Assembly (NCBI GenBank): GCA_950295325.1
Contig: OX485808.1
Coordinates: 498,501-562,500, forward strand
DNA length: 64,000 nucleotides
Source: Polytrichum commune
Taxonomy: Eukaryota; Streptophyta; Polytrichopsida; Polytrichales; Polytrichaceae
Direction: 5' to 3'
How positions within the stretch are numbered: the stretch's first letter is position 1; every line of letters starts with the position of its first letter. The translations under genes were made by a program, and so were the position numbers. Of the stretch, positions 1,936-56,689 are shown one piece after another. The notes beneath the pieces were generated by a model, which ran no database searches, was not told where the DNA came from, and was given only the letters and a program-made list of their open reading frames with translations.

Positions 1936-1942
1936 CAACCAT

Positions 1943-4900
1943 TCAATTTGATCGACAACATTGAAGCCAACACATCAATTTTCTCCAGAATTGACTCAAA
2001 TGTTTGCCCATGGATAACTTCACCTCTTTGACCTCCCTTGTCCCGCAAAGATCAATTTCCTCCGAGGTCGTCACAAAGGTCTTATCAAAGGCCTTTGGTA
2101 TCCCCTTCAAGCCATCACAACCACTAATGCACTGGGAGGTCAAGGAGGTCAAGTTACCCAACGCCTCCGGTATCTCCTGCAAGCCTTCACAACCACTAAC
2201 GTACAGGGAGGTCAAGGAGGTCAAGTTACCCAACGCCTCCGGTATCTCCTTCAAGCCTTTACACCAACTTAAGTCGAGGGAGGTCAAGGAGGTCAAGTTA
2301 CCCAACACCTCCGGTATCTCCTTCAAGCCTTTACACGCACTTAAGTTGAGGGAGGTCAAGGAGGTCAAGTTACCCAACGCCTCCGGTATCTCCTTCAAGC
2401 CTTCACATTCACTTAAGTCGAGGGTGGTCAAGGAAGTCAAGTTACCCAACGCCTCCGGTATCTCCTTCAAGCCTTTACACCAACTTAAGTCGAGGGAGGT
2501 CAAGGAGGTCAAGTTACCCAACACCTCCGGTATCTCCTCCAAGCCTTTACACCAACTTAAGTCGAGGGAGGTCAAGGAGGTCAAGTTACCCAACGCCTCC
2601 GGTATCTCCTTCAAACTTTGACACCCCCATAAATTAAGGGAGGTCAAGGAGGTCAAGTTACCCAACGCCTCCGGTATCTCCTTCAAGCCTTCACACCCAC
2701 TTAAGTCGAGGGAGGTCAAGGAGGTCAAGTTACCCAACGCCTCCGGTATCTCCTTCAAGCCTTCACACTCATTTAAGTTGAGGGAGGTCAAGGAGGTCAA
2801 GTTACCCAACGCCTCCGGTATCTCCTTCAAGCCTTCACACCCACTTAAGTCGAGGGTGGTCAAGGAGGTCAAGTTACCCAATGCCTCCGGTATCTCCTTC
2901 AAGCCTTTACACTCACTTAACTCAAAATAAGTCAACATGTTTAAGTTGCCTATGGTGCTTGGTAAGGATGGTAAATTTGGGCAATCTTTTATTCTCATTT
3001 TGTATAAGAATTTCAATTGTCCGATACTATCACCAATTTCGCATAGAGTAGATACGCCTTCAATCACCAAAATTTGCAAATATATGTGATTCTTCCAATT
3101 GAACAAAAATGGATTTGAGGTCATTTCAAAATGAGGATTTGGTTGGCAAATCACCATCAAACATTGGAGATTTTTGGATTGATTCAAAAATTTATCAAAT
3201 GACATTGAACCCTCAAAACCTTGAAATCCAAAAAATCGAAGCGAAAACAAAGGTATTTCCACATCAAAGTGTGTTTGAAATTCCTTCATTTGTTCATTGA
3301 AAGAAAGACATTCGATACGCTCCATAACGTTTCGTGGTTTCCCACTCCATGTTGCTTTTTGTATTTTCCACCATCGAGTACCAATATACATGGGGTCTGT
3401 TTCCACAATCATACGTCCCATATCCCGTAATTGTTCATGGACTTCGTAGACTCCATCTTTGTCAATCTTAACTAAAGATTTATCTTCCAGATGTTTCAAA
3501 GACTCTTCAGCATTTTTGTTGACATCTCTCCATAAAGATGATGAGGTCACAATTTTTAATGTATCCATTGGGACCAAATCTTTGCTGAAATAACAACATA
3601 GGTCCAAAAACAAATTCTTTTCTTCTTGGGTAAGGTCATCGAAGCTTATCCGTAGGCAATGCCAAACCTCATTGTTATTCTCCAATCCCAAGGCTCTAGC
3701 CCTTTGTAGTCTTTGCAAAGCTCGCACCCAAATGCGTAGTCTCTTGAATCCATACAATGTTCCACCCACAACCTTCAAGCTCAAAGGCAACCCTTTACAT
3801 GCATCCACAATTTTCTCGACGATGTCCACCATATGAGATGGTGTTTCATATCCTTGATCACCAAAAGCATGCCTCGAGAATAATTTCATAGCTTCTCCTT
3901 TGATGAGTTCATCCAAATCTACACGACCAACATCTCCGAGGTGTTCCACAAGGTGCCAATCACGAGTTGTGATGATCATCTTGTTAGTACTCTTGGCTTT
4001 AAAGATCTCAACATCCATCAATTCATGAATTTGTGTACTATTGCCAATGTCATCAAGAACAATGAGAGTTTTTTTATTTGTGATTGTTTCACAAAGATGG
4101 GTCTTTGCTTCTACAATGTTTTTCACATCATCCACCTTTGCCCCCAAGTTGTTCAAAATTTCTTTGAATATCTCGATCTTGCCACAATTTTCGTTCTTCA
4201 TGAAAGTAAAGCTAAATGCTTCAAAACGACCACGCATGCACTCCATCACAGTTTTGGCCAATGTAGTTTTGCCCATTCCACCCATCCCTATAATGGCCAC
4301 TATAGAGTGTTTCTCCAATGCTTTCATGACCCCTGGGAATCTTTCTTGCGAACCAACAAACTCGTTTCCTCCTTTCTTTGCACTTGCGTCCCCCTTGTGC
4401 TCCATAGTATCTATTGTTGGTAGAATGTTCCCACTAGTTTCTTGAGTTCGAGGCATGCTGGACTTGTCCATCTCCACAACATGGTTCATATTGTTTGAAG
4501 CATTCAAATGAAGTTCTTGCCGAATTTGACGGAGCCTCGAACAAATATCTTGAAAGGTTGGCCTTTCTGATGGTTCAAAAGACCAACAATCTTTGATCAA
4601 AGATGCCAATGACTTAGGGCAATCGGGTGGCAAACTTGGCCTCTCTCCAGCTTGCATACTTTCTTTGACCGCGGCTCTCTTACCTTGTGAGAATGGAATC
4701 ACCTTCGTGACAATGTAAGAACACACCATGGCAAAGCTAAATACGTCACTTTTGAAAGCATTCACATGAGGTTTCAATAGATCATCAGATCTTGAAAATG
4801 TCTCTGGTGCCCTAAACCCGGTCGTACCTAGATTATGGGATGTTGGCTCTTCGTATGCATCTTGTGCTTCAATTTTTGAAATTCCAAAGTCCACCAATTT

Positions 4901-5938
4901 AACTTTCATGTAGCCTATGGAATCCAATATGGGATCATTGAAGGAGCTCACAAGTATATTATCGGGCTTCAAGTCACGGTGCGCAACATTCATGTCATGG
5001 AGATAGAGCATTCCGCTTGCAATTTGGAACATCACATCAACGACAACAAGGTTGGATTGTAGCAAATCAAGGTTCTTGATAATTGCAACTCCAAGATTTC
5101 TCTCCATCTTCTCCATCACTATATATCGCCATTTGCCATCATGGTCATATCCTTCACCACAACATATGAACTTAACAATGTTTGGATGACTCAACCCTGC
5201 TAAGATACCCGCTTCTTTCTTGAAGTTTTCATACGCTTTATCATCATAACATATGTCAACCGCTTTAAAAAACTTCATAGCCAATTCCAAGCCGAAGCAA
5301 TTTGTTTTGTATACTTGTCCACAAGCACCGCCTCCCAACCGAGTTGATCGTTCAGGAATCCGGTTGTATGTTGGAAATGTTCCATAATTCAACTCAGCGC
5401 CTTCTCCATTCATTCGACAAACCAACCGCTCGTAAGCATACTTTGCAACTTCCTCATCCTTCAAGGACTTTGTTGCATCAATATGTGTCAACAAGTGTTG
5501 GACCAACGCGTTTTGGTCTTCCTCCACTTCTGTAATATTGATCGGATTGAAGTCTATGGACTTTCGAAGGCCCATGGTCATTTTCCCCAATATTTGGAAT
5601 TGCTCACACAATGTATTGAAAACATGATTGAGCTCTTCAAGTAACTCGCGAAACTCCTCTTCATTATTCATCTGCCACAATGATGCATGAATCCAATCAT
5701 CCCTACCACAATCTTGGATTAATGCCTCGATTTTACACACAACTCGATATAAATCTTCCATATTTGGTCCAAGCTCCAGTTTGTGATGAGCTTGTCGAAC
5801 CCAAGTCATGAAATACTCTCCAACAAGTTTCGATATGATTTTTAAATGCAAACATTGCTTTGCATTCAATAAAATTCTCTTTTGATCCAATTGCTTCAAT
5901 TTTTTTGAGCACTCCATAAATAACAAGGAGTTGTCCAT
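1943..5938 (-). CDS. Protein kinase-NBS-LRR (PNL) disease-resistance-like protein, copy A
   Basis: Intact, apparently single-exon gene of 1331 residues from the first ATG at 5938 (the frame is open a further 9 codons upstream, without an ATG). Order: helical N-terminal region (1 to about 190); kinase (about 199-475) with glycine loop GGGACG (202-207), VAIK-type lysine (222), HRDLKPDN (320-327), DFG (350-352) and APE (377-379), all intact; NB-ARC with P-loop GMGGMGKT (551-558), kinase-2 LIVLDD (625-630), TTRD (657-660), GLPL (716-719) and VHEQLRDMG in the MHD position; 12 LRRs of 24 residues (992-1279); and a 52-residue tail ending QCCRSN. The LRR consensus is IPEALGNLTSLTSLDLSGC. By family knowledge, such proteins sense pathogens inside the cell, with the NB-ARC as nucleotide switch. 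The kinase could phosphorylate a partner, which is inference. A nearly identical copy lies at 45650-51445. Confidence 0.93.
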   Translation of the reverse strand: MDNSLLFMECSKKLKQLDQKRILLNAKQCLHLKIISKLVGEYFMTWVRQAHHKLELGPNMEDLYRVVCKIEALIQDCGRDDWIHASLWQMNNEEEFRELLEELNHVFNTLCEQFQILGKMTMGLRKSIDFNPINITEVEEDQNALVQHLLTHIDATKSLKDEEVAKYAYERLVCRMNGEGAELNYGTFPTYNRIPERSTRLGGGACGQVYKTNCFGLELAMKFFKAVDICYDDKAYENFKKEAGILAGLSHPNIVKFICCGEGYDHDGKWRYIVMEKMERNLGVAIIKNLDLLQSNLVVVDVMFQIASGMLYLHDMNVAHRDLKPDNILVSSFNDPILDSIGYMKVKLVDFGISKIEAQDAYEEPTSHNLGTTGFRAPETFSRSDDLLKPHVNAFKSDVFSFAMVCSYIVTKVIPFSQGKRAAVKESMQAGERPSLPPDCPKSLASLIKDCWSFEPSERPTFQDICSRLRQIRQELHLNASNNMNHVVEMDKSSMPRTQETSGNILPTIDTMEHKGDASAKKGGNEFVGSQERFPGVMKALEKHSIVAIIGMGGMGKTTLAKTVMECMRGRFEAFSFTFMKNENCGKIEIFKEILNNLGAKVDDVKNIVEAKTHLCETITNKKTLIVLDDIGNSTQIHELMDVEIFKAKSTNKMIITTRDWHLVEHLGDVGRVDLDELIKGEAMKLFSRHAFGDQGYETPSHMVDIVEKIVDACKGLPLSLKVVGGTLYGFKRLRIWVRALQRLQRARALGLENNNEVWHCLRISFDDLTQEEKNLFLDLCCYFSKDLVPMDTLKIVTSSSLWRDVNKNAEESLKHLEDKSLVKIDKDGVYEVHEQLRDMGRMIVETDPMYIGTRWWKIQKATWSGKPRNVMERIECLSFNEQMKEFQTHFDVEIPLFSLRFFGFQGFEGSMSFDKFLNQSKNLQCLMVICQPNPHFEMTSNPFLFNWKNHIYLQILVIEGVSTLCEIGDSIGQLKFLYKMRIKDCPNLPSLPSTIGNLNMLTYFELSECKGLKEIPEALGNLTSLTTLDLSGCEGLKEIPEALGNLTSLTSLNLNECEGLKEIPEALGNLTSLTSLDLSGCEGLKEIPEALGNLTSLTSLNLWGCQSLKEIPEALGNLTSLTSLDLSWCKGLEEIPEVLGNLTSLTSLDLSWCKGLKEIPEALGNLTSLTTLDLSECEGLKEIPEALGNLTSLTSLNLSACKGLKEIPEVLGNLTSLTSLDLSWCKGLKEIPEALGNLTSLTSLYVSGCEGLQEIPEALGNLTSLTSQCISGCDGLKGIPKAFDKTFVTTSEEIDLCGTREVKEVKLSMGKHLSQFWRKLMCWLQCCRSN
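2102..2965 (-). repeat. 72-bp tandem array encoding 12 LRRs (PNL-A)
   Basis: Twelve consecutive 72-bp units, each one 24-residue LRR. The first (LPSTIGNLNM...) is divergent, and most of the other eleven differ only at the solvent-side positions after LDL. Because 72 is divisible by three, gain or loss of units keeps the frame. The opposite strand is also open in long stretches (REVKEVKLPNASG repeats), which is a by-product of the periodicity. Confidence 0.95.
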
Positions 5939-5975
5939 GATGCAAAACTTGCCACACGCCCTCAACTATATCTAC

Positions 5976-6095: not shown

Positions 6096-8341
6096 TTGTA
6101 CTGACATGCAACATATATTACATTCGACAAAATCAAATCTAGGATTTAAGAATAGAAACATGTATTCTAAAAAGTCCTCCTTAATAGTTCCAACGCTATA
6201 TAATCTACCAGGGAACATACACAACTTAATCACTTCATGTGATAAACATTTTTGTAACATAATGTAAGACGTTAAATCATCTTGGGCAGCCTAGATTTTC
6301 CACATTTATAGAAGATATTAAGGTGTAAAGAAATCTTCATAAACCATTCATACAATATAACATAAGCATTGTACTATATACAATACAAATGTTTTCAAAC
6401 TTGTATCATGATATTATTGAAGTATTTGTACTATTACATTTATAATCCACTTTGAATTCTTTTCATCCATAATATATAACCCATATTGACCTAACCTTAA
6501 AACACACATCGTTTGGATTAAATATGGCAAATTAGATGAAAACGATACATCTATTGTCAATGATATCTCTAAATTTTTTTAAAAAGAAACTTGTGCATTT
6601 TCTAGAAATTTCCTTGCAGAGTTGTGTTAACTTTCCAATTACCACAAAGATATGTACCAAAATTAGCAAAACATGTATCCAGAGTCGCTCCTAAATTCAC
6701 TTGGTTTGACTCTACCACCTTGAAAAACGTTTATCAATCAACTATGAACCACACATCAACTCTTTAAGACAAAAAACTTAACGTACACTTCTTAGAATTC
6801 TCGCCACTAAGGTTGCATCATGAGTGCTAGGCTTTAATGGTGTAAAATCTATTTTGCTTTCATCCTTCAATTTCTATGCAACATGAACACATCATAATAG
6901 CCCCAAACTCACTTCGTCATCATAATGAGGTTGCCTTCATGCTATGACATGTTGTTGGCTACAAAGGTAGGAATAAGTGTACTACAGCTTGTGTAAGTTA
7001 CAAATCTTCGCACATTCTTTTTTAGGTGATCATAGGCGATGCATGTGTTGGTCGGAAAGCAAACTCAACTAGAGACGGTGATGATTAATTACTTTGCCCT
7101 ACTCTTTGATTAATGAGACGGGACTCGCTCGCTACTTGGATGTTAGTGGCTTCTCACAAGATCAATCATGTCAATCAACTTTCATAATCCTTCAAGAGTG
7201 GACTTGGGACTCAAGACCTTTATTTATCACCCAATTTGATGGCATTGCATCAACTATAGATAGTTTATCCACATTCGTAAAATCAAATTTGTCTCCAAGC
7301 AACGTTTGAATCCAATGTAACGAACAAATTGTTTATCTCCAAACATCGCGCGAGATACTAGAAATTTGAACAATTGAGTTGGAGCAAGTTTATTGGTGGT
7401 TACTACGACATATAATACTACAGACTTCCATCTTCGAACATATCCGAACAAAATATGCCCATTACTAGATATCAAGTAAATCTATGTTGATGCATGAATA
7501 TTGGACACAATGCAAATGTATACGTGTAGCCTTATCAATTGCTCTTCTAGTAAAAATGGGGAAACGAGGATTTGATTGGGACTACATTTATTGTTGGACA
7601 CGCAATTTTGTTGGGTGTTATTTGATGAAAATAACACATCTAAAGTGGTACTTCGAACACATAAATGTTTTTCAAACCATGTACATAAATTAGGAATTCC
7701 ATCAATGTTGATATTTTTTTCCCAATGTTAGTTGGGAAACAAGTTTGTTTGTTTTGTAATGCACATGTACCAACGTATGACGGAAACAATACCCGCACAT
7801 GCATTATTATTTTCGTATAAACTATTTTGTCTAAATTTACTTAGATCCTAGTACTCTATTAGATGAGCATAACATTCGAATCTAAGCGAGGTTGTACTCA
7901 ACACGCTTGGGTTGATGAATTCATACTAAATTACCACCTCTATGTGACGAGATGGATAACATCCTTTAGTCTATTCACAATTCTCTTCAAGCAATTAGTT
8001 TGCTCCTAAACACCCACAATAGTTTACGACTGCACATGCCACTCAATAACATTATCACGCACCACTATCCCTCCGAGTCCTTCAACTATTCCCAAATAGG
8101 ACGGTAATTTCGATCCAAGAACATGGTGGATAGAAATCATGCAAGCACATGATTGTGTTGAAATAGAGAAAGATATGCAACTATGTGAAGGGATAGGATA
8201 TACCAATGATGGTGGTGATGTGGTAAGATTGCCCTTAAAGTCAACTTCCCAATCTTCATGACCCATGCTATTGGGGGAGTTGGGGAGTCGCACAAGTCCC
8301 TACTCTACAACACCACACTAAATGTTGAAGTTAGCATGGCC
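6096..8341. other. 2.2-kb segment present only in duplication copy A
   Basis: Copy B runs continuously from the equivalent of 6095 to the equivalent of 8342. Copy A carries about 2246 extra bases, flanked on both sides by a cacac pentamer (left ctacacac, right gcccacacc). No gene, terminal inverted repeat or LTR was recognised inside; short open frames (for example near 7094-7309 and 7484-7693) have no recognisable motif. It is either an insertion in A or a microhomology-mediated deletion in B. Confidence 0.7.
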
Positions 8342-9470
8342 CACACCAGATATCACCATATGCATACATATGTCTTGTAGTCACTGAGTGGCAACTAGGG
8401 AGGGTGTCATACCACACTTGGTGCTACATGACAAGTCATGAAGACCACTCTAATCAACATGGTCCACCGTTTTTAATCCCACACTCAATGTCTATGGTCT
8501 TGATTGCTCACTAATTTGTTGGGTGCACAAGATCCCTAGGAACAACCTTTGCTCAACTCAACATCGAGGCAACCAAGTTTCTTCACTAAACAACCACCAA
8601 CAAATATGATCCACAAAGAAGAGCGCAAGTAAATAAGAAGCAACCTACATGTGAAGTAGATTACCTTGTATTTACCCACCTCTCTGCATGACAAACACCT
8701 ACTTCACTTCAAGATATTGATTCGTCTAAAAAAAACAAACAAATCTTCAGCTATTGGTAGAACCACAAGTTGCACACAAATTGGTCGAGCCAAGCGTTAT
8801 TTCTAACGATTACATACCTTTTCTTCATCGTTGCAGAGTGAAACAAGAGGTAGCATCCAACAAAGCCTGGGAAGCGAAAGGGACGAGGAGCCCAAAGAAT
8901 AATAAATCAATGCCCATGCCCCGAGTGTCAGAAACCACTGCCGTTGCCAGCCACGAACCACCATCACCAAAGAAACTGTAAGTTATGGGAGTTGATTGAT
9001 CGTGAGAGCCAAAGTGGTGAACAAAGGCCAGCAGGAGAGAAGGTTGGCTATAGCAGAGAAGAAGGCGCTTTTGTCCAAGGATCGTGGTTCCCAAGTCCAC
9101 GTCCATAACTTAATGGGCAAGGAAAACCCGGACTTGGTCACACTGGGTCACCGATTCTACAGAGAAGACCCACGCTGGCCAAGGTGTCTGTACTTACTCG
9201 AGATTCGTTCTCCTTGCATTATTGTCCTGCCTTTAAGAGGTGCACAGTCAGAAACCTTTAATTTTTCAATATGATAATGTTTCATGCCTTGCGGATTCCA
9301 AGTGTACCTTGGGGGATGAGCAACACTTGGACCTTGGACCATTATTGGGTTTCCTCCCTCCACCTTAGTTGGCAGGCTAGCCAAAGTGTCTGTATTTAAA
9401 TCACTCCACGTTTGCGTCCGTGCCAGCAACCTAAGCTACCCTCCTCCACACTTCCTCTAGTGCTCAATAT
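8342..9470. other. Intergenic: duplicated to 8933, then copy-A-only sequence
   Basis: 8342-8933 matches 51603-52194. After that the two copies diverge abruptly. 8934 to about 9384 has small open frames but no recognisable domain. 9385-9470 is a diverged partial copy of the repeat described at 9471-9741. No gene can be supported. Confidence 0.6.
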
Positions 9471-36821: not shown

Positions 36822-38259
36822 TGTCACATCCTTTGCGTTCTCCAATGTCCACCCGGCCGCCTTGGCTACGCCTGCCTTCAATGATTTCTTTCGTGTGAAT
36901 CGAGTCCTCGCCGTTGATTCCACACTACTGCACGAACCTTGGCTTGTTGATTCTATGAAGCATATAAGTTTAAGTATTAACAAATACTTGTGTAACTTAT
37001 GGTGGCCTCTCCTTTACAGGCCTTCACATTCCATTACTAAGTTCAACCTCAATGGTCAATCACCAATACATTTAAATGTTACACACACTCCTTCCTACCT
37101 AATGAATCCAACACTTAAAGTCTAAACATCATAAGTAAAAAACTATAAGAGTGTGTCACTAGTTTTTGGAAGTTTGGACATAGTCTCGGTTTTTTGGCTC
37201 TCAAAAATTCATATGAAGTCCAAAAAATGAGTTCTTCGTATCCATGGATAGGAACTGAAGTCCTCTACATGAATATGCAATAATATTTTTACTGCCACAA
37301 AGTATATGGTCGCAATTCTACGTTGTTCCCTTTGAATCTGCACTTTTTTACTAGTTTTTGGAAGTTTGGACATAGTCTCGGTTTTTATCTCTCAAAAATT
37401 CATATGAAGTCCAAAAAATGAGTTCTTGGTATTCATGGATAAGTAATGAAGTCCTCTACATGAATATGCAACAATATTTTCACTGCTAAAAAGTATATGG
37501 TCGCAATTCTACGCTGTTCCCTTTGAATCTACATTTTTTCACTAGTTTTTGGAATTTTGGACATAGTCTCGGTTTTTTGGCTCTGAAAAATTCATATGAA
37601 GTCCAACAAAACTAAATGCTCCAATAAGAGACTTTGCACATCCGCATAAGTATAAGGCTAATCAATGTAAATCCAAGGATTCAAACAAAGCCATAAATTG
37701 AACTTTAAATCATTCACGCCCAACTATTAACTAACAAGAGGTCAAGCCCTCTTCAAGGCCAACTAGCCTTGGCTCCTAACCTTACACCCATGCACACACA
37801 TGTACTCCTATTTTGCTTCCCACACACTCTCATTTATAACACGTGGGGTGCCAAGGAGCACGAAGGAAAGAGAGGATGAATGAAGGAAGAACAAGGTCTT
37901 AAATAGTGAGTTTGAGGAGGTGAGCACCCTCAAGGCTCACGATAAGCCTTCGATATTTCCTCCTATTTTGTAGGGTCTCATCTTATCTCCTAAGCCTTCC
38001 TCCCTCAAACCATCAACAAAGATCCTAATTCAAATATTTAACTATCTTTGGCTTTCTACCTACCACACTTTCCACCAAGGTCATGTCCTCACACTACTAA
38101 ACTTATTCAATCCACTCCACACAAGCCTAATGCTTAAATTTAGTTTTCTTCAAGCTTCACTCTTTTTATATTTTTGTGAATAGTCATAAATCATAAAAAC
38201 ACCACTTGTAATGTTTTACAAGTGTTAACAACACATGTGGGCATCATTTTGGGCTCACA
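36822..38259 (-). mobile_element. LTR, family 1, inserted in the transposase relic
   Basis: On minus it begins TGTGAGCCCAAAATGATG (38259) and shares internal landmarks with 15497-15960. The other end is probably TGTCACATCC at 36822, by alignment with the ends of the LTRs at 7 and 28914. No convincing 5-bp target duplication was found (ggtaa against ggaag), so the left edge is approximate. It contains a 192-bp tandem repeat and separates two coding parts of the transposase relic. Confidence 0.5.
37158..37605. repeat. 192-bp tandem repeat, about 2.4 copies
   Basis: Units start actagtttttgga at 37158, 37350 and 37541 and contain gacatagtctcggtttt, aattcatatgaagtcc and gtatatggtcgcaattctac. Units are nearly identical, so the expansion is recent. 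It lies inside the LTR-like block. Confidence 0.92.
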
Positions 38260-40195: not shown

Positions 40196-40741
40196 GTCGG
40201 GTACGCAACTCCAATATTATATGGTCCTGATTATAATCACTTATAATGCGTTTTAGTCCAATATTGAGTGATACAATTTGTTTTAATGTAGGAAACCCTT
40301 GTAGCCCTTCTAACAAGAAATCCAAAAATGTAATTATATATAGGAAATGAATATATTTTGAAGCATATAATTGCATTAAAAAACCTAATTATATGATTTT
40401 TTAATACATGTACCATAGGTCAAACTACCCAACTTTTTGGATTTTTTAATAAAATTTTAACATTGTGAATGAATTATAATTTTAATAGGAGGAAACTATT
40501 CGTGGCTTATAATTTTAATAGAAGACTTAATAAATATGCAACCCAATTTTTTTTTCATCTCAATTATTTAATTTGGTCTTACCCAACTATTTTTTCATCT
40601 CATTTTATTTAATTTGGTCTTCACCCAACTTTTTGATCATTTTAATTTGATATAATTTGATATAATTTTTAGAAAAACCGTCCTTTAAGCCGTTTTAAGT
40701 ACGATGCCCCCTGCGTATAATATGGGAGTTGTGTACCCGGG
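40196..40741 (-). mobile_element. GGGTACGCAACTCCC TIR element, copy 2
   Basis: A 546-bp inverted relative of 31488-32023, with ends gtcgggtacgcaactcc and cccgggtacacaactccc (reversed right end). A perfect 8-bp target duplication actcatgt lies at 40188-40195 and 40742-40749. Its private target duplication shows an independent insertion. Confidence 0.85.
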
Positions 40742-44886: not shown

Positions 44887-45808
44887 CATTAGATGCACAA
44901 TCAACATCCATTCAATATAACATGCCTTGTCTTCATATGGCTATGCTAAAAGCCTTTATTGACCCCCTCTACAATATACACATTTGTAATGTAAAAAATC
45001 TTGCAAAGCAAATGTAGTTTCACTTCATAAAGCTCAAAGACGTTGCATTTTTCAAATCAACTTCTGATTGTGTTCAATAGCACCACACAATATCCTTACA
45101 TCCACTCAATTCCGGATACAATAATAGAGGAAATACATGATGCATCCACCTACTAAAGGCCTATGGTATCTCTTACAAGCCTATTTACTAACATATTTGG
45201 AAGGGGGGACAACAAGGCCAACTCATCCAACCTCCAATATCTCCTTCCACATTTTACAACTAGTTACTTAAGCAAGTTCTAGGATGTCAAATTAATCCAC
45301 GCATCGGGTATCTTGTATAGGCCATTACACCCTTTCAAGTGCAACACATCAAAAATGTCAATACACCAAAGGCCTCTAGTATCTACTTTAGGCCATTCCA
45401 ATCAAATAAATCCAACAAGGTCAAGGAAGTTGAGTCCACAACGTCCCCTGAACCTCATTTGAGCCTTTACACACATTTAAATATAAAGATATTAAGGAAG
45501 TTAAGTTATCCCAAAACCTCAAATATGTTTTCTAAGCCTTGACATCTACATAAGTTGACTCTACTCCGGAAGACCATGCTGCCCACCGCCTCAGATATTT
45601 CTTTCCAGCTAATACCCAACGCCTTACATTTTCAAGCCTACACAACCATTCATTTTGATCGACAACATTGAATCCAAGACATCAGTTTTCGACAGAATTG
45701 ACTCAAACGTTTGCCCATGCATAACTTCACCTCTTTGACCTCTTTTTTCTCGCAATAAACAATATTCTCCACCATCGTCACAACGGTCTTATCGAAGGCC
45801 TTTGGTAT

Positions 45809-48472
45809 CCCTTTCAAGCCTTCACAACCACTAAAGTTGAGGGAGGTCAAGGAGGACAAGTTACCCAATGACTCCCGTATCTCCTTCAAGCCTTCACACC
45901 TACTTAAGTCCAGGGAGGTCAAGGGGGTTAAGTTACTCAATGCTTCCGGTATCTCCTTCAGGCCTTCACACTCAATTAAGTCGAGGGAGGTCAAGGAGGT
46001 CAAGTTACCCAACGCCTCCGGTATCTCCTTCAAACTTCGACACCCCTTTAAATTAAGGGAGGTCAAGGAGGTCAAGTTACCCAACGCCTCCGGCATCTCC
46101 TTCAAGGCTTCACACCAACTTAAGTCGAGGGAGGTCAAGGAGGTCAAGTTACCCAAAGCCTCCGGTATCTCCTTCAAGCCTTCACACCCACTTAAGTCCA
46201 GGGTGGTCAAGGAGGTCAAGTTACCCAACGCCTCCGGTATCTCCTTCAAACTTCGACACCCCTTTAAATTAAGGGAGGTCAAGGAGGTCAAGTTACCCAA
46301 CGCCTCCGGCATCTCCTTCAAAGCTTCACACCAACTTAAGTCGAGGGAGGTCAAGGAGGTCAAGTTACCCAAAGCCTCCGGTATCTCCTTCAAGCCTTCA
46401 CACCCACTTAAGTCCAGGGTGGTCAAGGAGGTCAAGTTACCCAACGCCTCCGGTATCTCCTTCAAACTTCGACACCCCTTTAAATTAAGGGAGGTCAAGG
46501 AGGTCAAGTTACCCAACGCCTCCGGCATCTCCTTCAAGGCTTCACACCAACTTAAGTCGAGGGAGGTCAAGGAGGTCAAGTTACCCAAAGCCTCCGGTAT
46601 CTCCTTCAAGCCTTCACACCCACTTAAGTCCAGGGTGGTCAAGGAGGTCAAGTTACCCAACGCCTCCGGTATCTCCTTCAAACTTCGACACCCCTTTAAA
46701 TTAAGGGAGGTCAAGGAGGTCAAGTTACCCAACGCCTCCGGCATCTCCTTCAAAGCTTCACACCAACTTAAGTCGAGGGAGGTCAAGGAGGTCAAGTTAC
46801 CCAAAGCCTCCGGTATCTCCTTCAAGCCTTCACACCCACTTAAGTCCAGGGTGGTCAAGGAGGTCAAGTTACCCAACGCCTCCGGTATCTCCTTCAAGCC
46901 TTTGCACCAACTTAAGTCGAGGGAGGTCAAGGAGGTCAAGTTACCCAACGCCTCCGGTATCTCCTTGAAGTCTTCACAAAAACTTAAGTCGAGGGTGGTC
47001 AAGGAGGTCAAGTTACCCAACGCCTCCGGTATCTCCTTCAAGCTTTCACACCCACATAACTTGAGGTAGGTCAAGGAGGTCAAGTTACCCAACGCCTCCG
47101 GTATCTCCTTCAAGCCTTCACACCCACTTAACCTGAGGGTGGTCAAGGAGGTCAAGTTACCCAACGCCTCCGGTATCTCCTTCAAGCCTTCACACCTACT
47201 TAAGTCGAGGGAGGTCAAGGAGGTCAAGTTACCCAAAACCTCCGGTATCTCCTTCAAGCCTTTACACCCACTTAAGTCCAGGGTGGTCAAGGAGGTCAAG
47301 TTACCCAACGCCTCCGGTATCTCCTTCAAGCCTTTGCACTAACTTAAGTCGAGGGAGGTCAAGGAGGTCAAGTTATCCAACGCCTCCGGTATCTCCTTCA
47401 AGCCTTCACACCTACTTAAGTTGAGGGAGGTCAAGGAGGTCAAGTTACCCAACGCCTCCGGTATCTCCTTCAAGCCTTCACACCAACTTAAGTCGAGGGA
47501 GGTCAAGGAGGTCAAGTTACCCAAAGCCTCCGGTATCTCCTTCAAGCCTTTACACCCACTTAAGTCCAGGGTGGTCAAGGAGGTCAAGTTACCCAACGCC
47601 TCCGGTATCTCCTTCAAGCCTTCACACCTACTTAAGTTGAGGGAGGTCAAGGAGGTCAAGTTACCCAACGCCTCCGGCATCTCCTTCAAGGCTTCACACC
47701 AACTTAAGTCGAGGGAGGTCAAGGAGGTCAAGTTACCCAAAGCCTCCGGTATCTCCTTCAAGCCTTCACACCCACTTAAGTCCAGGGTGGTCAAGGAGGT
47801 CAAGTTACCCAACGCCTCCGGTATCTCCTTCAAACTTCGACACCCCTTTAAATTAAGGGAGGTCAAGGAGGTCAAGTTACCCAACGCCTCCGGCATCTCC
47901 TTCAAAGCTTCACACCAACTTAAGTCGAGGGAGGTCAAGGAGGTCAAGTTACCCAAAGCCTCCGGTATCTCCTTCAAGCCTTCACACCCACTTAAGTCCA
48001 GGGTGGTCAAGGAGGTCAAGTTACCCAACGCCTCCGGTATCTCCTTCAAGCCTTTGCACCAACTTAAGTCGAGGGAGGTCAAGGAGGTCAAGTTACCCAA
48101 CGCCTCCGGTATCTCCTTGAAGTCTTCACAAAAACTTAAGTCGAGGGTGGTCAAGGAGGTCAAGTTACCCAACGCCTCCGGTATCTCCTTCAAGCCATCA
48201 CACCGATTTAAGTTGAGGGAGGTCAAGGAGGTCAAGTTACCCAACGCCTCGGATATCTCCTTCAAGCCTTTACACCTACTTAAGTCGAGGTAGGTCAAGG
48301 AGGTCAAGTTACCCAACGCCTCCGGTATCTCCTTCAAGCCTTCACACCCACTTAAGTTGAGGGAGGTCAAGGAGGTCAAGTTACCCAATGCCTCCGGTAT
48401 CTCCTTCAAACCTTTACACTCACTTAAGTCAAAATAAGTCAACATGTTTAAGTTGCCTATGGTGCTTGGTAG
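45809..48472 (-). repeat. 72-bp tandem array encoding 37 LRRs (PNL-B)
   Basis: Exactly 2664 bp, or 37 units of 72 bp. A seven-unit series (FCEDF, WCKGL, SGCEGL, WCEAL, KGCRSL, SGCEGL, WCEAL) occurs at units 5-11 and again at 21-27, showing block duplication within the array. Confidence 0.95.
46025..46888 (-). repeat. Higher-order repeat: four 216-bp (2 x 432-bp) blocks
   Basis: Units 23-34 are four copies of a three-LRR block (SGCEGL / SWCEAL / KGCRSL). Copies alternate at one site: ttcaaggctt near 46104 and 46534, ttcaaagctt near 46319 and 46750. The true last-duplicated unit is therefore 432 bp (six LRRs). The same alternation appears near 47690 and 47904. Confidence 0.9.
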
Positions 48473-51400
48473 GGATCGCAAATTTATGCAACTTCTTATT
48501 CTCATTTTGTATAAGAATTTCAATTGTCCGATACTATCACCAATTTCATATAGAGTAGATACGCCTTCAATCACCAAAATTTGCAAATCTATGTGATTGT
48601 CCCAATTGAACATAAATGGATTTGAGGTCATTTCAAAATTCCATTTTGGTTGGAAAATCACCATCAAACATTGGAGATTTTTGGATTGATTCAAAAATTT
48701 ATCAAATGACATTGAACCCTCAAAACCTTGAAATCCAAAAAATCGAAGTGAAAACAAAGGTATTCCCACGTCAAAGTGTGTTTGAAGCTTCTTCGTTGGT
48801 TCATTGAAAGAAAGACATTCGATACGCTCCATAACGTTTTGTGTTTTCCCACTCCATGTTGCTTTTTGTATTTTCCACCATCGAGTACCAATATACATGG
48901 GGTCTGTTTCCACAATCATACGTCCCATATCCCGTAATTGTTCATGGACTTCGTAGACTCCATCTTTGTCAATCTTAACCAAAGATTTATCTTCCAGACG
49001 TTTCAAAGACTCTTCAACATTCTTGTTGACATCTCTCCATAAACATGATGAGGTCACAATTTTCAATGTATCCATTGGGACCAAATCTTTGCTGAAATAA
49101 CAACATAGGTCCAAGAACAAATTCTTTTCTTCTTGGGTAAGGTCATCGAAGCTTATCCGTAGGCAATGCCAAACCTCATTGTTATTTTCCAATCCCAAGG
49201 CTCTTGCCCTTTGTAGTCTTTGCAAAGCTCTCACCCAAATGCGTAGCCTCTTGAATCCATACAATGTTCCACCCACAACCTTCAAGCTCAAAGGCAACCC
49301 TTTACATGCATCCACAATTTTCTCGACGATGTCCACCATATGAGATGGTGTTTCATATCCTTGATCACCAAAAGCATGCCTCGAGAATAATTTCATCGCT
49401 TCCCCTTTGATGAGTTCATCCAAATCTACACGACCAACATCTTCGAGGTGTTCCACAAGGTGCCAATCACGAGTTGTGATGATCATCTTGTTAGTGCTCT
49501 TGGCTTTAAAGATCTCAACATCCATCAATTCATGAATTTGTGTACTATTGCCAATGTCGTCAAGAACAATGAGAGTTTTTTTATTTGTGATTGTTTCACA
49601 AAGATGGGTCTTGGCTTCTACAATGTTTTTCACATCATCGACCTTTGCCCCCAAGTTGTTCAAAATTTCTTTGAATATCTCGATATTGCCACAATTTTCG
49701 TTCTTCATGAAAATAAAGCTAAATGCTTCAAAACGACCACGCATGCACTCCATCACAGTTTTGGCCAATGTAGTTTTGCCCATTCCACCCACCCCTATAA
49801 TGGCCACTATAGAGTGTTTCTCCAATGCCTTCATGACCCCTGGGAATCTTTCTTGCGAACCAACAAACTCGTTTCCTCCTTTCATTGCATTTGCGTCCCC
49901 CTTGTGCTCCATAGTATCTATTGTTGGTAGAATGTTCCCACTAGTTTCTTGAGTTCGAGGCATGTTGGACTTGCCCATCTCCACAACATGGTTCCTATTG
50001 TTTGAAGCATTCAAATGAAGTTCTTGGCGAATTTGACGGAGCCTCGAACAAATATCTTGAAAGGTCGGCCTTTCTGATGGTTCAAAAGACCAACAATCTT
50101 TGATCAAAGATGCCAATGACTTGGGGCAATCGGGTGGCAAACTTGGCCTCTTTCCAGCTTGCATACTTTCTTTGACCTTGGATCTCTCACCTTGCGAGAA
50201 TGGAATCTCATTCGTGAGAATGTAAGAACACACCATGGCAAAGCTAAATACGTCACTTTTGAAAGCATTCACATGAGGTTTCAATAGATCATTAGGTCTT
50301 GAAAATGTCTCTGGTGCCCTAAACCCGGTCGTACCTAGATTATGGGATGTTGGCTCTTCGTATGCATCTTGTGCTTCAATTTTTGAAATTCCAAAGTCCA
50401 CCAATTTAACTTTCATGTAGCCTATGGAATCCAATATGGGATCATTCAAGGAGCTCACAAGTATATTATCGGGCTTCAAGTCACGGTGTGCAACATTCAT
50501 GTCATGGAGATAGAGCATTCCGCTTGCAATTTGGAACATGACATCAACGACAACAAGGTTGGATCGTAGCAAATCAAGGTTCTTGATAATTGCAACTCCA
50601 AGATTTCTCTCCATCTTCTCCATCACTATATATCGCCATTTGCCATCATGGTCATATCCTTCACCACAACATATGAACTTAACAATGCTTGGATGACTCA
50701 ACCCTGCTAAGATACCCGCTTCTTTCTTGAAGTTTTCATACGCTTTATCATCATAACATATGTCAACCGCTTTAAAAAACTTCATAGCCAATTCCAAGCC
50801 GAAGCAATTTGTTTTGTATACTTGTCCACAAGCACCGCCTCCCAACCGAGTTGATCGTTCAGGAATCCGGTTGTATGTTGGAAATGTTCCATAATTCAAC
50901 TCAGCGCCTTCTCCATTCATTCGACAAACCAACCGCTCGTAAGCATACTTTGCAACTTCCTCATCCTTCAAGGACTTTGTTGCATCAATATGTGTCAACA
51001 AGTGTTGGACCAACGCGTTTTCGTCTTCCTCCACTTCAGTAATATTGATCGGATTGAAGTCTATGGACTTTCGAAGGCCCATGGTCATTTTCCCTAATAT
51101 TTGGAATTGCTCACATAATGTATTGAAAACATGATTGAGCTCTTCAAGTAACTCGCGAAACTCCTCTTCATTATTCATCTGCCACAATGATGCATGAATC
51201 CAATCGTCCCTACCACAATCTTGGATTAATGCCTCGATTTTACACACAACTCGATATAAATCTTCCATATTTGGTCCAAGCTCCAATTTGTGATGAGCTT
51301 GTCGAACCCAAGTCATGAAATACTCTCCAACAAGTTTCGATATGATTTTTAAATGCAAACATTGCTTTGCATTCAATAAAATTCTCTTTTGATCCAATTG

Positions 51401-51482
51401 CTTCAATTTTTCTAAGCACTCCATAAATAACAAGGAGTTGTCCATGATGCAAAACTTGCCACACGCCCTCAACTATATCTAC

Positions 51483-51488
51483 TTTATA
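51483..51488 (-). promoter_or_regulatory. TATA-like box upstream of PNL-B
   Basis: TATAAA on minus, 38 bases before the ATG at 51445, conserved with copy A. Confidence 0.3.
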
Positions 51489-52373
51489 AAACCTTAATTC
51501 CAAAGGAATTTGTATTCCGAAGGAAGCTTGAAAGATCATATAATCATCTGCACATCCAAGCCAAAAGTCAAAAATAATAATGCACCTCCATGTACTACAC
51601 ACCAAATGTCGATGACCATATGCATCTATATGTCTTGTAGTCACTGAGTGGCAGCTAGGGAGGGGTGTCATACCACACTTGGTGCTACATCACAAGTCAT
51701 GAAGACAACTCTAATCAACATGGCCCGACGTTTTTAATCCCACACTCAATGTCTATGGTCTTGATTGCTCACTAAATTGTTGGGTGCACAAAATCCCTAC
51801 GAAAAACCCTTGCTCAACTCAACATCGAGGAAACCAAGTTTCTTCACTAAACAACCACCAACAAATATGATACACATAGAAGAGCCCAAGTTAATAGGAA
51901 GGAACCTACATGTGAAGTAGATTACCTCGTATTTACCCACCTCTCTGCATGACAAACACCTACTTCACTTCAAGATATTGATACGTCTCAAAGAAACAAA
52001 CAAATCTTCAACAATTGGTAGAACCACAAGTTGCACACAGTTTGGTCGAGCCAAGCGATATTTCTAACGGTTACATAGCTTTTCTTCATCGTTGCAAAGT
52101 GAAACAAGAGGTAGCGTCCAACAAAGCCTGGAAAGCGAAAGGGACGAGGAGCCCAAAGAATAATAAATCAGTGCCCATGACCCCCAGTGTCATGGAGGAA
52201 TTCCTTTTAACAAATTCTCCATGTCCTTGAAAAATACACCAGGGGGAAACTGCAATAGCGCAGGTATACCAATTACTCCACTTCTCTTCCGTTTCCAGAA
52301 ATCTGAATGTGAAACGTTTGTACAAGAAGCCAAGGCTCTAGAAAAGATGCAGCAAGCAGATCTGTTGTCTCTT

Positions 52374-52568
52374 TTAGTCCCCTGCACCTGATGCAGCTGC
52401 TTCCTCCTTGCCCCTGGTTATATAATACTCAGGGAAAGCCTCTTCAATGTATGACTCCGAGCGCCTCCGGTCTGGGAGCCACACCCTGGGTTGGGCTTCT
52501 GCAAGAGAAGCACCAAGGCAGCCCAGGCTCCCCGGCAGAGAAGGGTATATCTTAAGAATGTCACGCAT
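52374..52568 (-). CDS. Candidate small exon or hypothetical protein, copy-B-only region
   Basis: A 64-residue open frame starting MRDILKIYPSLPGSLGCLG and containing QPRVWLPDRRRSESYIEEAF, preceded on minus by an acceptor-like ttattacag. Composition is protein-like and GC-richer than its surroundings, but I do not recognise the family. Just upstream (52611-52680) the sequence resembles the leader-exon region of the small gene at 58310-58380, so this may be the coding part of a diverged paralogous locus sharing that promoter type. Absent from copy A. Confidence 0.3.
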   Translation of the reverse strand: MRDILKIYPSLPGSLGCLGASLAEAQPRVWLPDRRRSESYIEEAFPEYYITRGKEEAAASGAGD

Positions 52569-52599
52569 CGAGAATCCCTGTAATAATTACGCACACTCC

Positions 52600-54400
52600 T
52601 TGCACTTGCCAAACTGCTTCAAAATAAGAAGTTTGTCACATTCCTGAAACAAGAGCCAAATCCTACCTCAACAGAGTACAGCTCAAGTGTCCATTTCAGG
52701 GAAATCCTTTGGTCAATAATCTGAGATGAACGTGAGATTAACCTTCAACTGAGGTCTCTGGACAATATAAAGTAGGCAGGCCTTAAATGGACACTTTAAG
52801 CTCTGCACCCACATCACCTAGGATACAAAACATACAAATAGTGCGAGATGATTGCTGATGCCAAATCGGGTTAGTTAGCCATTTGCCTCATTAATTTCAG
52901 AGTTCATATAAGTATCTTATAGTTTATCAAAGTAAAAATTCTCGTGGACATAAATGGTCATATAGGTCCCCCCCAATTATGATGACTAACCACACACCAC
53001 TCAAGTATAGCTGTCTAATTAGCAAAAGTGACCATGAAAGGCCCGCTTACCTTAGCTCTTTGCTGGCTCAAATTCCCTCACTAACAGTCCAACACAACCC
53101 CCTGATCCAATTACCACTTCCGAAACTCCTCTTGCAATGGACCTCGCCTATGGCTACCCCTGTCCAAAACCCGTCCGACATGGGGCCCAGGGTGCACACC
53201 TCCAAAAATCCCGACAAGCTCTCCAACTCCACCGCTCCTCAACCAAATGAGATGATTCCTGACTTCAACCCACGCACCTAACAAGCCAAACATTACCGGC
53301 AAGTAAACCCCCGCACTTAAATTACCCACCCTCGCTCCTGCATCCTCAAAATTCGCATGCGGTAAACGTGCCTAATTCCCACCTAGCAATAATTTGGACG
53401 CCTGTATTTGATTGGTATGTGGTTAATAGTGGATCTAAGAACGGGCACCAAAAAGACATGTGTTCAAACTATACTAACTACTCTAGGCTCAATAGTCGAT
53501 ATGATTGGGGGACCTATATGACCACTTAATGAACACAAGAATCTTCACTTTGATAATGAATAAATCATTCAGATGAGATCCAAAAGCTATGAGGCTAATG
53601 GCTACGGACACAAATTGCAATTGGCAATCATCTGCACTAATTGCGTGTTTCATATCTTACTTCCCTAGAAGTGGGTGCACAGAGAGAGGTATCTAAATTA
53701 GGCACACCTATCTTATCCTTATTCTCGAGATCCAAAACTACCCGATCCTAAAATACGATAATCGACGCTCCAAGGTAACACGAATGTTCTTGATAGGAAC
53801 AAGAATCACAAGACATCATCATCAATTCATCCAATCCTCTTCCCAAATTCTATCAATTCGATAGACGAGTCCTTTACAACGTAATCTCACTCACAGTGGT
53901 GGACCAGAAACTCCTCGTGAGCCGGCAATGCAGAACAACAACAACGATGAAAATCGAAGATTCTCACCTTCTCACAACCAACCACAACCGCACCGACCTC
54001 GATCAGGATTTGATGCTCCCGCCACGGCCTGCTTGTTGACGAGAAAACCAGCGGAAAAGGGTGTTCACCGCCACATGAGAGCACCAAACCCCCTATGTGG
54101 CCCGCGGGACCTTGGAACAGCACAGAATTTGCGAAAGAAAGGGTTGGGAGTAACGGCAAGAGGAGAAGGAGCGCATGGAGGGACGATGTAATGAGGGCAC
54201 ACGCGGATGGCATGTGCGGGGAGTGGATTGGTTGGCTATGGCGAAACCCTAGGCAGGGCGCTGCGACAGGGGAGCGTGGCATCCAGGTAGCAGAGCTGCC
54301 ACCGCTCTCGCATATCCTCAGCGGACCTCCGTTCCCCATTTGTTCCCAGCGTTCCCTCATTGTTCCCTAGCGGCCAAGAAGGAAGCTCTTGGTGAGCCTT
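52600..54400 (-). other. Third, diverged copy of the small gene's promoter/leader region
   Basis: Parts resemble 58310-59140: 52611-52680 with 58310-58380, 53740-53870 with 58490-58650, and the GC-rich block 53880-54390 with its CCAAT (54227-54231) in a gccatagCCAAccaat context. A GCAGGCCTT MITE (52769-53055, inverted) and another relative (53405-53725) lie inside. The 157-residue open frame 53887-54360 is read here as leader/promoter sequence, not a gene. Confidence 0.4.
52769..53055 (-). mobile_element. GCAGGCCTT MITE-like element, inverted copy
   Basis: Left end gtaggcaggccttaaatgg and right end gtgaccatgaaaggcccgc are the two termini of the family in inverted order. The interior aggtccccccaattatgatg matches 10750 reversed. 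Confidence 0.55.
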
Positions 54401-55194
54401 CCCGCCACACATTGGAAGCTGCTACTTGTTAGGGGCGCTCTAACAAAATGGAGCAATCCTATTGGCCGAGAGGTGTAAATTGGACCCAAGGCCACGAGCT
54501 CAGGGTCCCAGACCAAGAAGAGGCAAAGTGAGGAGTCTCCTACATGGCATCGTTTTGGAGGGAAACGTTATTGATCGGACTCGAGAAATGAAGCTCACAG
54601 GAGAGCTCGTGTTTTGGAGAACCACTTTGGAAGGAAACGTCGAAGGGAGGGGCCAATTTAAGGGTTCAATTTTGCCTCAAATTATTTCAAATTGGTCCCT
54701 AAGTCCTTGGACTGTGGAACCCCATTTTAAAAACCCCTTGGATGGCATGGGACAGTTTCGTGGCAAGATATCGACAACTCTATATGTTGTGGCGAGATTT
54801 CAACCCGGTTGTCATCCCTATTGTGGAATATAAATATCCGTGGGTCTCAAGAATTTAAGTGAACAAACAACATTGATATTCATCAAATATATTTCTCAAG
54901 TAAAGTCTTATTCCTTATAATTTCTTAGTTATGAAGACATCAAATTTATTCATAAATATTTTTAAGCTTGGAAAAAGTCAAAATAATGTTTAACATGATA
55001 AATTAGTTGCATCTGAATGAATTACAACTTTTCAAGAAAAAGGAATTTGTTAAATTGAATTGGGTCTAAGTACGTTTTACGAAAAGATTTTTGATGCATG
55101 ATGTTTGTTGCTCTCATGATGTAATTTAACATAATTTTACCTAAATGCCTTAATAATATCAAGAATGAGATTATCGGTTTTGGGTGAACATTAA
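54401..55194. other. Non-coding stretch, no gene supported
   Basis: 54462-54833 is open on plus for 123 codons, but I see no recognisable domain or context. The rest is AT-rich. Nothing repeated elsewhere in the window was found here. Confidence 0.4.
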
Positions 55195-55206
55195 TATTTT
55201 TATGCA

Positions 55207-55584
55207 GATAGATAGAAAGATAGATAGAAACTCCGGTCCCTTTTTAGCAAGGGGCCGGCGTGAATAAAGTGTCAGTTCATAATGCCAATGACCTAATGCC
55301 CACCGGACAAGGGGACATTGGGACAATACTACTCTACCCTTTCGAGGATGGACATTGTAGTGACACACCATACTAGTTCCTAGCTAGCCACTAGTGCCTT
55401 GAAGATACTGGGCATGGTATCCCCCTAAAGGGCTTTGAGCTACCCATACAACAAGGTCCAAGGACCCCCCACCATAGTTGGGTGGACTAAAGTGGTGAGC
55501 ACCACGCCGGCATGGGGAATAGAACTCACAACCTCCTCATCGGGGGCCATAAGCCCTAACCACCAAGCCAAGGCCCGCGGTGCC
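55207..55584 (-). mobile_element. tRNA-derived SINE, copy 2
   Basis: Inverted copy of 32275-32641, 378 bp. On minus the tRNA-like head lies at the right (ggttaggg and gggttctattcccc motifs) and the tail of ctat repeats at the left. A perfect 12-bp target duplication tatttttatgca lies at 55195-55206 and 55585-55596. It is longer in the tail than copy 1. Confidence 0.9.
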
Positions 55585-55596
55585 TATTTTTATGCA

Positions 55597-56689
55597 TACT
55601 TTATTTAATCTAAATTTGTAGGGATGTAAACTAGCTTTGACATCAACATGCCCTAGACATTGAGACTTTAAGCTTAGAAATCAACAAGAAGTATGTTAGT
55701 GGTATTGATCTCACAACCGGATCTCATAAAGGGAATTTGCCTAGTCATAAACCTCAAATGGTGCCCCTCATGCATCGTCCAATCCTAGCTCTAAAATTGA
55801 AGAACATGAATACAATCACATGAAATTCAAATGGTGGTCCCATTCCCAAGTCATACATTCCTTGGAAGACACAAAGAGCTACATAATGCAAAGACTTTTA
55901 GGTAGAAAAGCCCAATTATGTTACATGTCTTAATCAGATATAATGTTCAACTACATATCAATCAGATATGAATGGTTCAACTACATGTTCAAAATATGAT
56001 AACTATTCTAGGCTCGATAGTGAACATAATTGAGGGGACCTATATGACCACTCAGACGAGCACAAGAATCTTCACATTGATAGTGATTAGATTATTCATA
56101 TGAGCTCCAAAACATTTTTGAGGAAAGGGGCTACAAACTCAATGTGGATTGGCTACTTTCTTGTACTGATCACGTATTTCATATCCTAGGAGAAGTGGGC
56201 TAGTCAGGAAAAGTAACCATTTAAGACCCATTTACCTTAATCTGAGATCTTTCCTTTCAATAATTTTGTTTCATTTCATAGGACCATGTCTTGCATTCAG
56301 ATTGCATTCAGACCTTGACTTACATGGTGGAAATTATAAATTCGTAAATACAAGATGGGTTGTGGACTGTATTATCTGTTTTTCAAGGCAAGGTTGTCTC
56401 AAAGAGCAGCTGTGACAAAATGCTACACTCATCAGCAAATCCTTTGAGGCCAATGCAATTAAGTTTTGAACACCATGCGATTTAGATATGGTCTATGGGA
56501 AGCAAGATGCGAATGACCTTGACTGCCCCTTGTTTTGAATAATGTTGAGCTTTGCATTTGTATCAACGGTGTGAGCTCTGTGTCTTATCCTTGAATTATA
56601 GGTACTTCTTTCATTTCCACAACTCCTAAACACATATCTGAAAGTAATGTCACACTCCTGAAGATTACTTCATGGATATGAAGGGAAAC
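55597..56689. other. Copy-B-only intergenic with a GCAGGCCTT-family relic
   Basis: About 55970-56258 resembles the family at 10589 (ctattctaggctcgatag, catatgagctcc, catatcctaggag). No gene recognised elsewhere. Homology to copy A resumes at 56690 (cctaatgtgattgacaac). Confidence 0.5.

What the first reader, a model, noticed from the sequence alone, without database searches (positions are those of the whole stretch)
45809..48472. LRR array expanded from 12 to 37 near-identical units between two otherwise almost identical PNL genes
Both arrays are exact multiples of 72 bp and the genes are near-identical elsewhere, so array length is changing much faster than the rest of the gene. Variation is concentrated at the residues after LDL, the solvent-facing part of the LRR. 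This looks like a system for generating recognition diversity by unit exchange.
Basis: partly seen in the sequence, partly recalled or inferred. Interest (0 to 1): 0.75.

Follow-up and report, generated by a model that had tools for sequence, protein, structure and literature searches.

The report
Fast-changing LRR arrays in immune receptors
In this plant genome the sensing part of the NLR immune receptors that were examined is a chain of near-identical 24-amino-acid blocks, and the number and order of blocks changes, by block duplication and swapping between genes, much faster than the rest of the gene.

Summary
Gene A has 12 LRR units and gene B 37, all exactly 72 bp, in kinase-NB-ARC-LRR genes whose kinase/NB part differs by 2.8%. 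B is probably dead: it has an in-frame TAG in unit 16 and lacks 2.25 kb of upstream DNA present at the other 21 genes of its subfamily. "12 expanded to 37" is not the likely direction: A is a chimera (5' part like a paralog on another chromosome, 3' end like neighbour L005), and its nearest relatives by the core carry 37-78 units.

The wider pattern is stronger than claimed. In 32 of the 38 detected paralogs, arrays hold 12 to about 110 units; all 23 pairs with core divergence under 3% differ in unit number. One pair shows the event: L023 equals L025 plus an exact 44-unit (3,168 bp) tandem duplication, with 1 mismatch in the 12,169 bp of L023 compared. Replacement variation sits around the predicted LRR strand. 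Six of six further NLRs, from two classes, have such arrays. Most likely mechanism: in-register unequal exchange and gene conversion, with selection on the LRR face; it resembles fungal WD40 NLRs, built with LRRs. The recognition role is inferred.

The parts
1943..5965 (-). gene A open frame, 1340 aa, kinase-NB-ARC-LRR, intact; probable start ATG at 5936-5938
   Evidence: the Met is shared by 32 of 32 paralogs, start codon inferred
4532..5347 (-). kinase domain of A
   Evidence: Pfam residues 207-478, coordinates by arithmetic
3638..4312 (-). NB-ARC domain of A
   Evidence: Pfam residues 552-776, coordinates by arithmetic
2090..2953 (-). LRR array of A, 12 units of 72 bp
6096..8352 (.). 2.25-kb non-coding segment upstream of A, conserved beside the other subfamily-1 paralogs and missing at B
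45650..51472 (-). gene B; first frame 51472-47339 (1377 aa), then open again after the stop down to 45650
50039..50854 (-). kinase domain of B
   Evidence: Pfam residues 207-478, coordinates by arithmetic
49145..49819 (-). NB-ARC domain of B
   Evidence: Pfam residues 552-776, coordinates by arithmetic
45797..48460 (-). LRR array of B, 37 units of 72 bp
47339..47341 (-). in-frame TAG in unit 16 of B
47669..48172 (-). B units 5-11, first copy of a 7-unit block
46517..47020 (-). B units 21-27, second copy of that block (lag 16 units)
46013..46876 (-). B units 23-34: four copies of a 3-unit (216 bp) block
51602..51612 (.). place in B where the 2.25-kb upstream segment is absent

Best explanation
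The arrays are the leucine-rich-repeat sensor of kinase-NB-ARC-LRR immune receptors of a land plant, probably a moss (inferred). Each LRR is one 72-bp unit, and the frame from kinase to LRR is uninterrupted, so whole units can be added or lost without breaking the frame. Shown: blocks of units are duplicated in register (44 units in L023; copies at lags of 3, 8, 14, 16 and 48 units elsewhere), and paralogs carry chimeric arrays or tails, so units move within and between genes; unit number differs even between genes with identical cores. Shown: replacement variation is concentrated in and just after the predicted beta strand while the leucine framework is conserved. Inferred: the exchange is unequal crossing-over plus gene conversion (a 3-kb exact block is hard to explain by polymerase slippage), and selection, presumably by pathogens, on the concave LRR face keeps variants, so the arrays act as a generator of recognition surfaces. 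Gene B is one product of this turnover and probably a dead copy; gene A is an intact recombinant with a short array.
For: Array lengths 12-109 in 32 paralogs, 1289 of 1314 spacings exactly 72 bp. 23 of 23 pairs under 3% core divergence differ in unit number (pairs not independent). L023 = L025 plus a 44-unit tandem copy: 0 of 3168 mismatches between copies, 1 of 7066 on the 5' side, 0 of 5103 on the 3' side; flanks differ at 6 of 5946 sites, so two loci. L022 chimeric between L025-like and L021-like arrays. A: core nearest L001, tail nearest L005; AU p 2e-4 (core) and 5e-30 (tail) against the alternative groupings, which I named after seeing the distances. Replacement diversity at positions 8, 9, 11, 13, 14 is 1.74 times overall synonymous diversity (1.47-2.15), 0.32 in the framework and elsewhere. 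Strands at unit positions 9-11 in the model. Arrays with other unit consensus in 6 of 6 further NLRs.
Against: Against the same codons' own synonymous diversity the excess is small: local piN/piS 1.32 (1.02-1.70), and 22 of 32 genes. Genes that are not intact show the same lengths (Mann-Whitney p 0.95) and the same replacement pattern, so length change needs no selection and the pattern is not peculiar to working genes. One assembly, no reads, no alleles, no expression, no recognition data. L022's sequence after its array matches neither presumed parent. Only 32 of 38 paralogs and 6 hand-picked other NLRs were examined.
Confidence: 0.7

Rival explanations
1. Neutral coding minisatellite: the 72-bp arrays grow and shrink by recombination errors, the LRR framework is kept by purifying selection, and the variable positions are merely less constrained; unit number and order carry no recognition information.
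For: Intact and non-intact genes have the same length distribution (p 0.95) and the same variation pattern; local piN/piS is only 1.32 with a lower bound of 1.02.
Against: Replacement diversity at the strand positions exceeds overall synonymous diversity (1.74, 1.47-2.15) and third-position diversity of other codons in 31 of 32 genes; long arrays stay open in working genes (up to 109 units).
Confidence: 0.22
2. Assembly artefact: array lengths were changed by the assembler, and the difference between A and B (or L023 and L025) is not real.
For: Near-identical tandem units are the classic case for mis-assembly (for Podospora, short-read assemblies were unreliable: PMC12222747, abstract); no reads could be examined; the L023 duplication is exact.
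Against: Distinct units alone differ: 11 in A, 21 in B, 36 in L001, 31 in L002. L023 and L025 have different flanks. L022 differs from L025 in unit content, not only in copy number. The sequenced pieces hold no N.
Confidence: 0.05
3. A dedicated or programmed recombination system acts on the arrays.
For: Array change outpaces substitution, and arrays occur in two NLR classes with different unit consensus.
Against: Tandem homology is enough to explain it; copy lags vary widely (3, 8, 14, 16, 44, 48 units). No recombination signal or enzyme was looked for.
Confidence: 0.03

Closest known systems
Podospora anserina nwd/hnwd genes (het-d, het-e, het-r): PMC1805685 (passages), PMC2873952 (abstract and first part of Results), PMC12222747 (abstract and impact statement); fungal NLRs with conserved repeats, PMC4986451 (passages)
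   Same: NLR-type receptors with near-identical tandem repeats, repeat number variation, exchange within and between paralogs, arrays kept also in pseudogenes, and replacement variation at surface positions.
   Different: NACHT and WD40 (or ANK, TPR) repeats, arrays of about 2-15 units in the table seen; the fungal survey reports no LRR. Recognition was shown there by genetics and is only inferred here.
Rice Xa1/Xo1 zfBED-NLR genes, PMC7004385 (passages)
   Same: Plant NLR genes with nearly identical tandem LRR repeats whose number differs between genes.
   Different: 93-aa repeats, five full ones in Xa1, zfBED domain; among more than 1000 rice NLR sequences found only at that locus. Here 24-aa units, 12 to about 110, in all 38 NLR genes examined.
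Melon Vat/Pm-w cluster, PMC10807702 (passages)
   Same: Number of conserved LRR repeats differs between cluster members; the authors suggest unequal crossing-over, and link repeat number to resistance specificity.
   Different: 65-aa repeats, 1 to 7 copies between imperfect LRRs, CC-NLR type.
Moss kinase-NLR genes (PNL, Pkn-NLR), PMC3352924 (passages), PMC11218826 (passages)
   Same: Protein kinase, NB-ARC and LRR in this order.
   Different: PNL genes of P. patens have phase-0 introns between kinase and NBS and between NBS and LRR; the 32 genes here show no such interruption. The passages seen do not mention array turnover.

Membership tests
Kinase-NB-ARC-LRR receptor (PNL / Pkn-NLR) by domain order | N-terminal protein kinase, central NB-ARC, C-terminal LRR | tested here: met
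   Pfam on A and B: kinase 207-478, NB-ARC 552-776, LRR to the end
PNL class as described in P. patens | phase-0 introns between kinase and NBS and between NBS and LRR | tested here: not met
   A and B read from kinase through LRR in one frame, as do the intact paralogs. So I use the architecture name only. Other kinase-NLRs of this genome (L040-L042) have the kinase in a separate frame
Fungal NLRs with highly conserved repeats (hnwd type) | NACHT or NB-ARC NOD with WD40, ANK or TPR repeats | tested here: not met
   NB-ARC with LRR: works alike, not a member
Fungal NLRs with highly conserved repeats (hnwd type) | high internal conservation of repeats (PMC4986451 uses over 85% identity over 100 aa) | tested here: inconclusive
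   mean pairwise aa identity of inner units 0.71-0.86, mean best-match identity 0.85-0.99 over 32 genes; I did not apply the published procedure
Fungal NLRs with highly conserved repeats (hnwd type) | repeat number variation and exchange within and between family members | tested here: met
   between paralogs of one genome; between individuals not testable here
Fungal NLRs with highly conserved repeats (hnwd type) | positive selection at surface codons of the repeat | tested here: inconclusive
   1.74 (1.47-2.15) against overall synonymous diversity, 1.32 (1.02-1.70) locally
Xa1/Xo1 type | zfBED domain and 93-aa near-identical repeats | tested here: not met
   no zfBED among the families listed, unit is 24 aa

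The most novel reading that the evidence does not exclude
In this lineage LRR arrays of near-identical units are the general NLR design rather than the exception, and they turn over so fast that individuals, or even branches of one clonal plant, carry different sensor repertoires: a plant counterpart of the fungal repeat-shuffling recognition system, used against pathogens or for self/non-self discrimination.
Probability: 0.15. Interest if true: 0.88.

Novelty: new variant of a known kind. Interest (0 to 1): 0.6.

Why it matters
Repeat-shuffling receptors are described in fungi, where the survey seen found no LRR NLRs (PMC4986451). In flowering plants the examples seen are small: five full repeats in Xa1, one to seven in Vat. 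Here all 38 NLR genes examined, from two classes, carry 72-bp-unit (in one case 144-bp) LRR arrays, up to about 110 units, and one block duplication is caught before any substitution separated its copies. That would be the same evolutionary design reached with a different repeat fold. It makes testable how fast a sensor can change shape and whether repeat number itself sets specificity, and it warns that short-read assemblies and gene models of such receptors may be wrong.

Tried and rejected
Reading the 2.25-kb difference upstream of A as an insertion in A: rejected. A match lies beside 21 of the 22 subfamily-1 genes examined (at L004 only 255 bp of it) and none is listed at B; none is listed beside the 10 subfamily-2 genes (in which 40 of 94 candidates were scored).

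A coding exon in that segment: no long conserved frame; conserved pieces occur in all three frames.

Correlation of length difference with core divergence: weak in subfamily 1 (Spearman 0.26, 231 non-independent pairs), absent in subfamily 2 (-0.13, 45 pairs). It used first counts, in which five arrays ran off the fetched end; these were extended and recounted, but the correlation was not repeated.

Register error: my unit index for L023/L025 was off by one (10 and 11 mismatches reported); one search repeats it in the right register (0 and 1).

Naming the organism: contig numbers C1-C7 appear among the matches, and the kinase-NLR type suggests a moss, but no call tested it; one search listed no paper that settles it.

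Literature for such arrays in moss NLRs: searches showed none in the rows listed (3 of 3, 20 of 66, 10 of 110, 12 of 59, 10 of 31 and 8 of 13 papers); the library lacks most subscription journals.

Fold search: the model of the A LRR (mean pLDDT 61; blocks over residues 191-410 at 82-90) matches many LRR proteins, RPP1 among them at ranks 40 and 50. It confirms an LRR solenoid and nothing more specific.

Full report
What is there. The window holds two copies of a kinase-NB-ARC-LRR gene on the minus strand (Pfam). Gene A has an open frame of 1340 aa ending at 1943; gene B one of 1377 aa ending at 47339. A carries 12 LRR units (2090-2953) and B 37 (45797-48460); the unit is 24 aa and every spacing in both arrays is exactly 72 bp.

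The frame of B stops at a TAG (47339-47341) in unit 16; beyond it the frame is open for 21 more units, to 45650. B also lacks about 2.25 kb that in A lies just upstream of the gene (6096-8352). That segment matches at 98% beside L001 and 95% beside L005; a match, often partial and at lower identity, lies beside 21 of the 22 subfamily-1 genes examined, and none is listed at B (none is listed beside the 10 subfamily-2 genes either). It has no long conserved frame, so promoter or leader is my guess. With two lesions B is most likely a dead copy, or at best a 15-unit receptor. B's length is partly block copying: units 5-11 recur as 21-27, and a 3-unit block stands four times as units 23-34. Distinct 72-mers: 21 of 37 in B, 11 of 12 in A.

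Direction of change. A search of the whole genome (408 Mb, 64 contigs) with the kinase region of A listed 78 matches, 38 of them at 54% identity or more. I examined 32 of these 38: A and B from the window and 30 fetched genes. In the core tree A pairs with L001 (contig C4, 78 units), then B (37), then L002 (43) (units as). The 900 bp after the array tell another story: there A is nearest L005 (3.1%) and 8.3-8.4% from L001 and B. The tail data reject A+B+L001 as one clade (AU p 5e-30) and the core data reject A+L005 (p 2e-4) (I named these groups after seeing the distances, so the p-values flatter). So A is a chimera; L005 has 14 units, and a short array gained or made by exchange is at least as likely as growth from 12 to 37.

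The family. The 32 genes hold 1346 units; 1289 of 1314 spacings are exactly 72 bp. Lengths run from 12 to 78 in 22 genes of subfamily 1 and from 30 to 109 in 10 genes of subfamily 2; a looser scan counts 110 in the longest. All 23 pairs with core divergence under 3% differ in unit number; 10 of these pairs are among five genes of one cluster. 16 of 32 genes are open from the start region through the last unit; the other 16 meet a stop or frameshift earlier. Lengths in the two groups do not differ (Mann-Whitney p 0.95), which suggests that length change goes on as a mutational process whether or not the gene works.

An event caught in the act. In a cluster at C6:37.18-37.34 Mb, L022, L023 and L025 have cores with 0-1 differences in 3078 bp but 32, 110 and 66 units (looser scan). 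L023 is L025 with units 9-52 repeated once: 44 units, 3168 bp, 0 mismatches between the copies, 1 mismatch in 7066 bp from the locus start through the first copy, and 0 in 5103 bp from the second copy to the end. The upstream flanks differ at 6 sites and 2 gaps in 5946 bp, so these are two loci and not one assembled twice. L022 matches L025 in its first 17 units (0-1 differences each) and L021 in units 25-31 (0-1 each), an exchange between neighbours; the sequence after its array matches neither, which I cannot explain. Older block copies appear in L027 (lag 48 units), L029 (14) and L001 (8). Among 1250 inner units 540 are strictly nearest to a unit of their own array, 295 tie and 415 are nearest to a unit of another gene.

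Where variation sits. First and last two units and units with stops or low scores were dropped before these counts. In the 16 intact genes replacement diversity at positions 8, 9, 11, 13, 14 is 1.74 times overall synonymous diversity (bootstrap over genes 1.47-2.15), at 16-17 1.76 (1.26-2.32), elsewhere 0.32 (0.29-0.36). The 16 non-intact genes show the same pattern. Second-position diversity at 9, 11, 13, 14, 16 exceeds third-position diversity of the other codons in 31 of 32 genes, but that of the same codons in only 22 of 32; the local piN/piS is 1.32 (1.02-1.70). Diversifying selection is thus supported, not proven. A single-sequence AlphaFold2 model of the A LRR (window 1946-3430) has strands at unit positions 9-11 and short helices at 23 to 3, with pLDDT 82-90 over residues 191-410 and low confidence at both ends (the mapping to unit positions is my arithmetic). 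The variable residues lie in and just after the strand, which in LRR proteins lines the concave face (general knowledge).

Beyond this family. Six further NLRs, chosen by hand from the listings, all have such arrays (6 of 6): three with a kinase in a separate frame (L040-L042) and three of CC type (L043-L045; NB-ARC with Rx_N and/or RPW8 hits). In L040 the array changes frame, so that gene may be broken. The unit consensus differs between these genes and from the A/B family, though L044 and L045 resemble each other; L042 has a 144-bp double unit. This looks like a genome-wide NLR design, but it was not surveyed: the NB-ARC search scored 126 of 466 candidates.

Comparison. The closest system in behaviour is the Podospora nwd/hnwd family: near-identical WD40 repeats, repeat number polymorphism, concerted evolution within and between loci, positive selection at four codons (PMC1805685, passages), and spontaneous mutants mostly by in-frame repeat loss (PMC2873952, abstract and first part of Results). 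The fungal survey reports WD, ANK and TPR repeats but no LRR (PMC4986451, passages). Plant examples are smaller: Xa1/Xo1 (PMC7004385, passages) and Vat (PMC10807702, passages). Kinase-NLRs are known from mosses (PMC3352924; PMC11218826; passages). No report of such arrays in moss NLRs appeared among the rows listed. Hence a new variant of a known kind.

Limits. One assembly, no reads, no alleles, no expression; the organism is not identified. That the arrays serve recognition is inferred from the receptor type and from where variation sits.

Noticed in passing
window 1184-13401 and 44887-60311: A and B lie in a larger duplicated stretch: further matches 9740-11352 / 56687-58309 (96%), 11351-12506 / 58342-59467 (93%) and 12560-13401 / 59468-60311 (89%). 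What these pieces encode was not examined.
   Followed up: no
window 45837-47069 (+) and 47421-48293 (+): Open frames of 410 and 290 aa on the opposite strand of the B array; most likely by-products of a stop-free repeat unit, not genes.
   Followed up: no
window 503-747 and 37156-37611: Two other tandem repeats: a 51-bp unit (4.8 copies) and a 191-bp unit (2.4 copies).
   Followed up: no
window 31488-32021 / 40198-40741; 22577-23045 / 23354-23821: Inverted repeat pairs of about 540 and 470 bp, 92.5% and 94.7% identical, perhaps mobile elements.
   Followed up: no
L042 (G000 C5:989000-994900): NLR array with a 144-bp double LRR unit, 25 copies, 93% mean identity: two LRR types alternate strictly.
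   Followed up: partly
G000 C6:37185200-37347200 (L021, L022, L023, L025, L026): Five kinase-NLR genes spaced 35-41 kb apart with cores 98.8-100% alike, which looks like a recent amplification of a whole segment.
   Followed up: partly
L022 after its array: The sequence after the L022 array matches neither L021 nor L025, although its array is shared with both.
   Followed up: no
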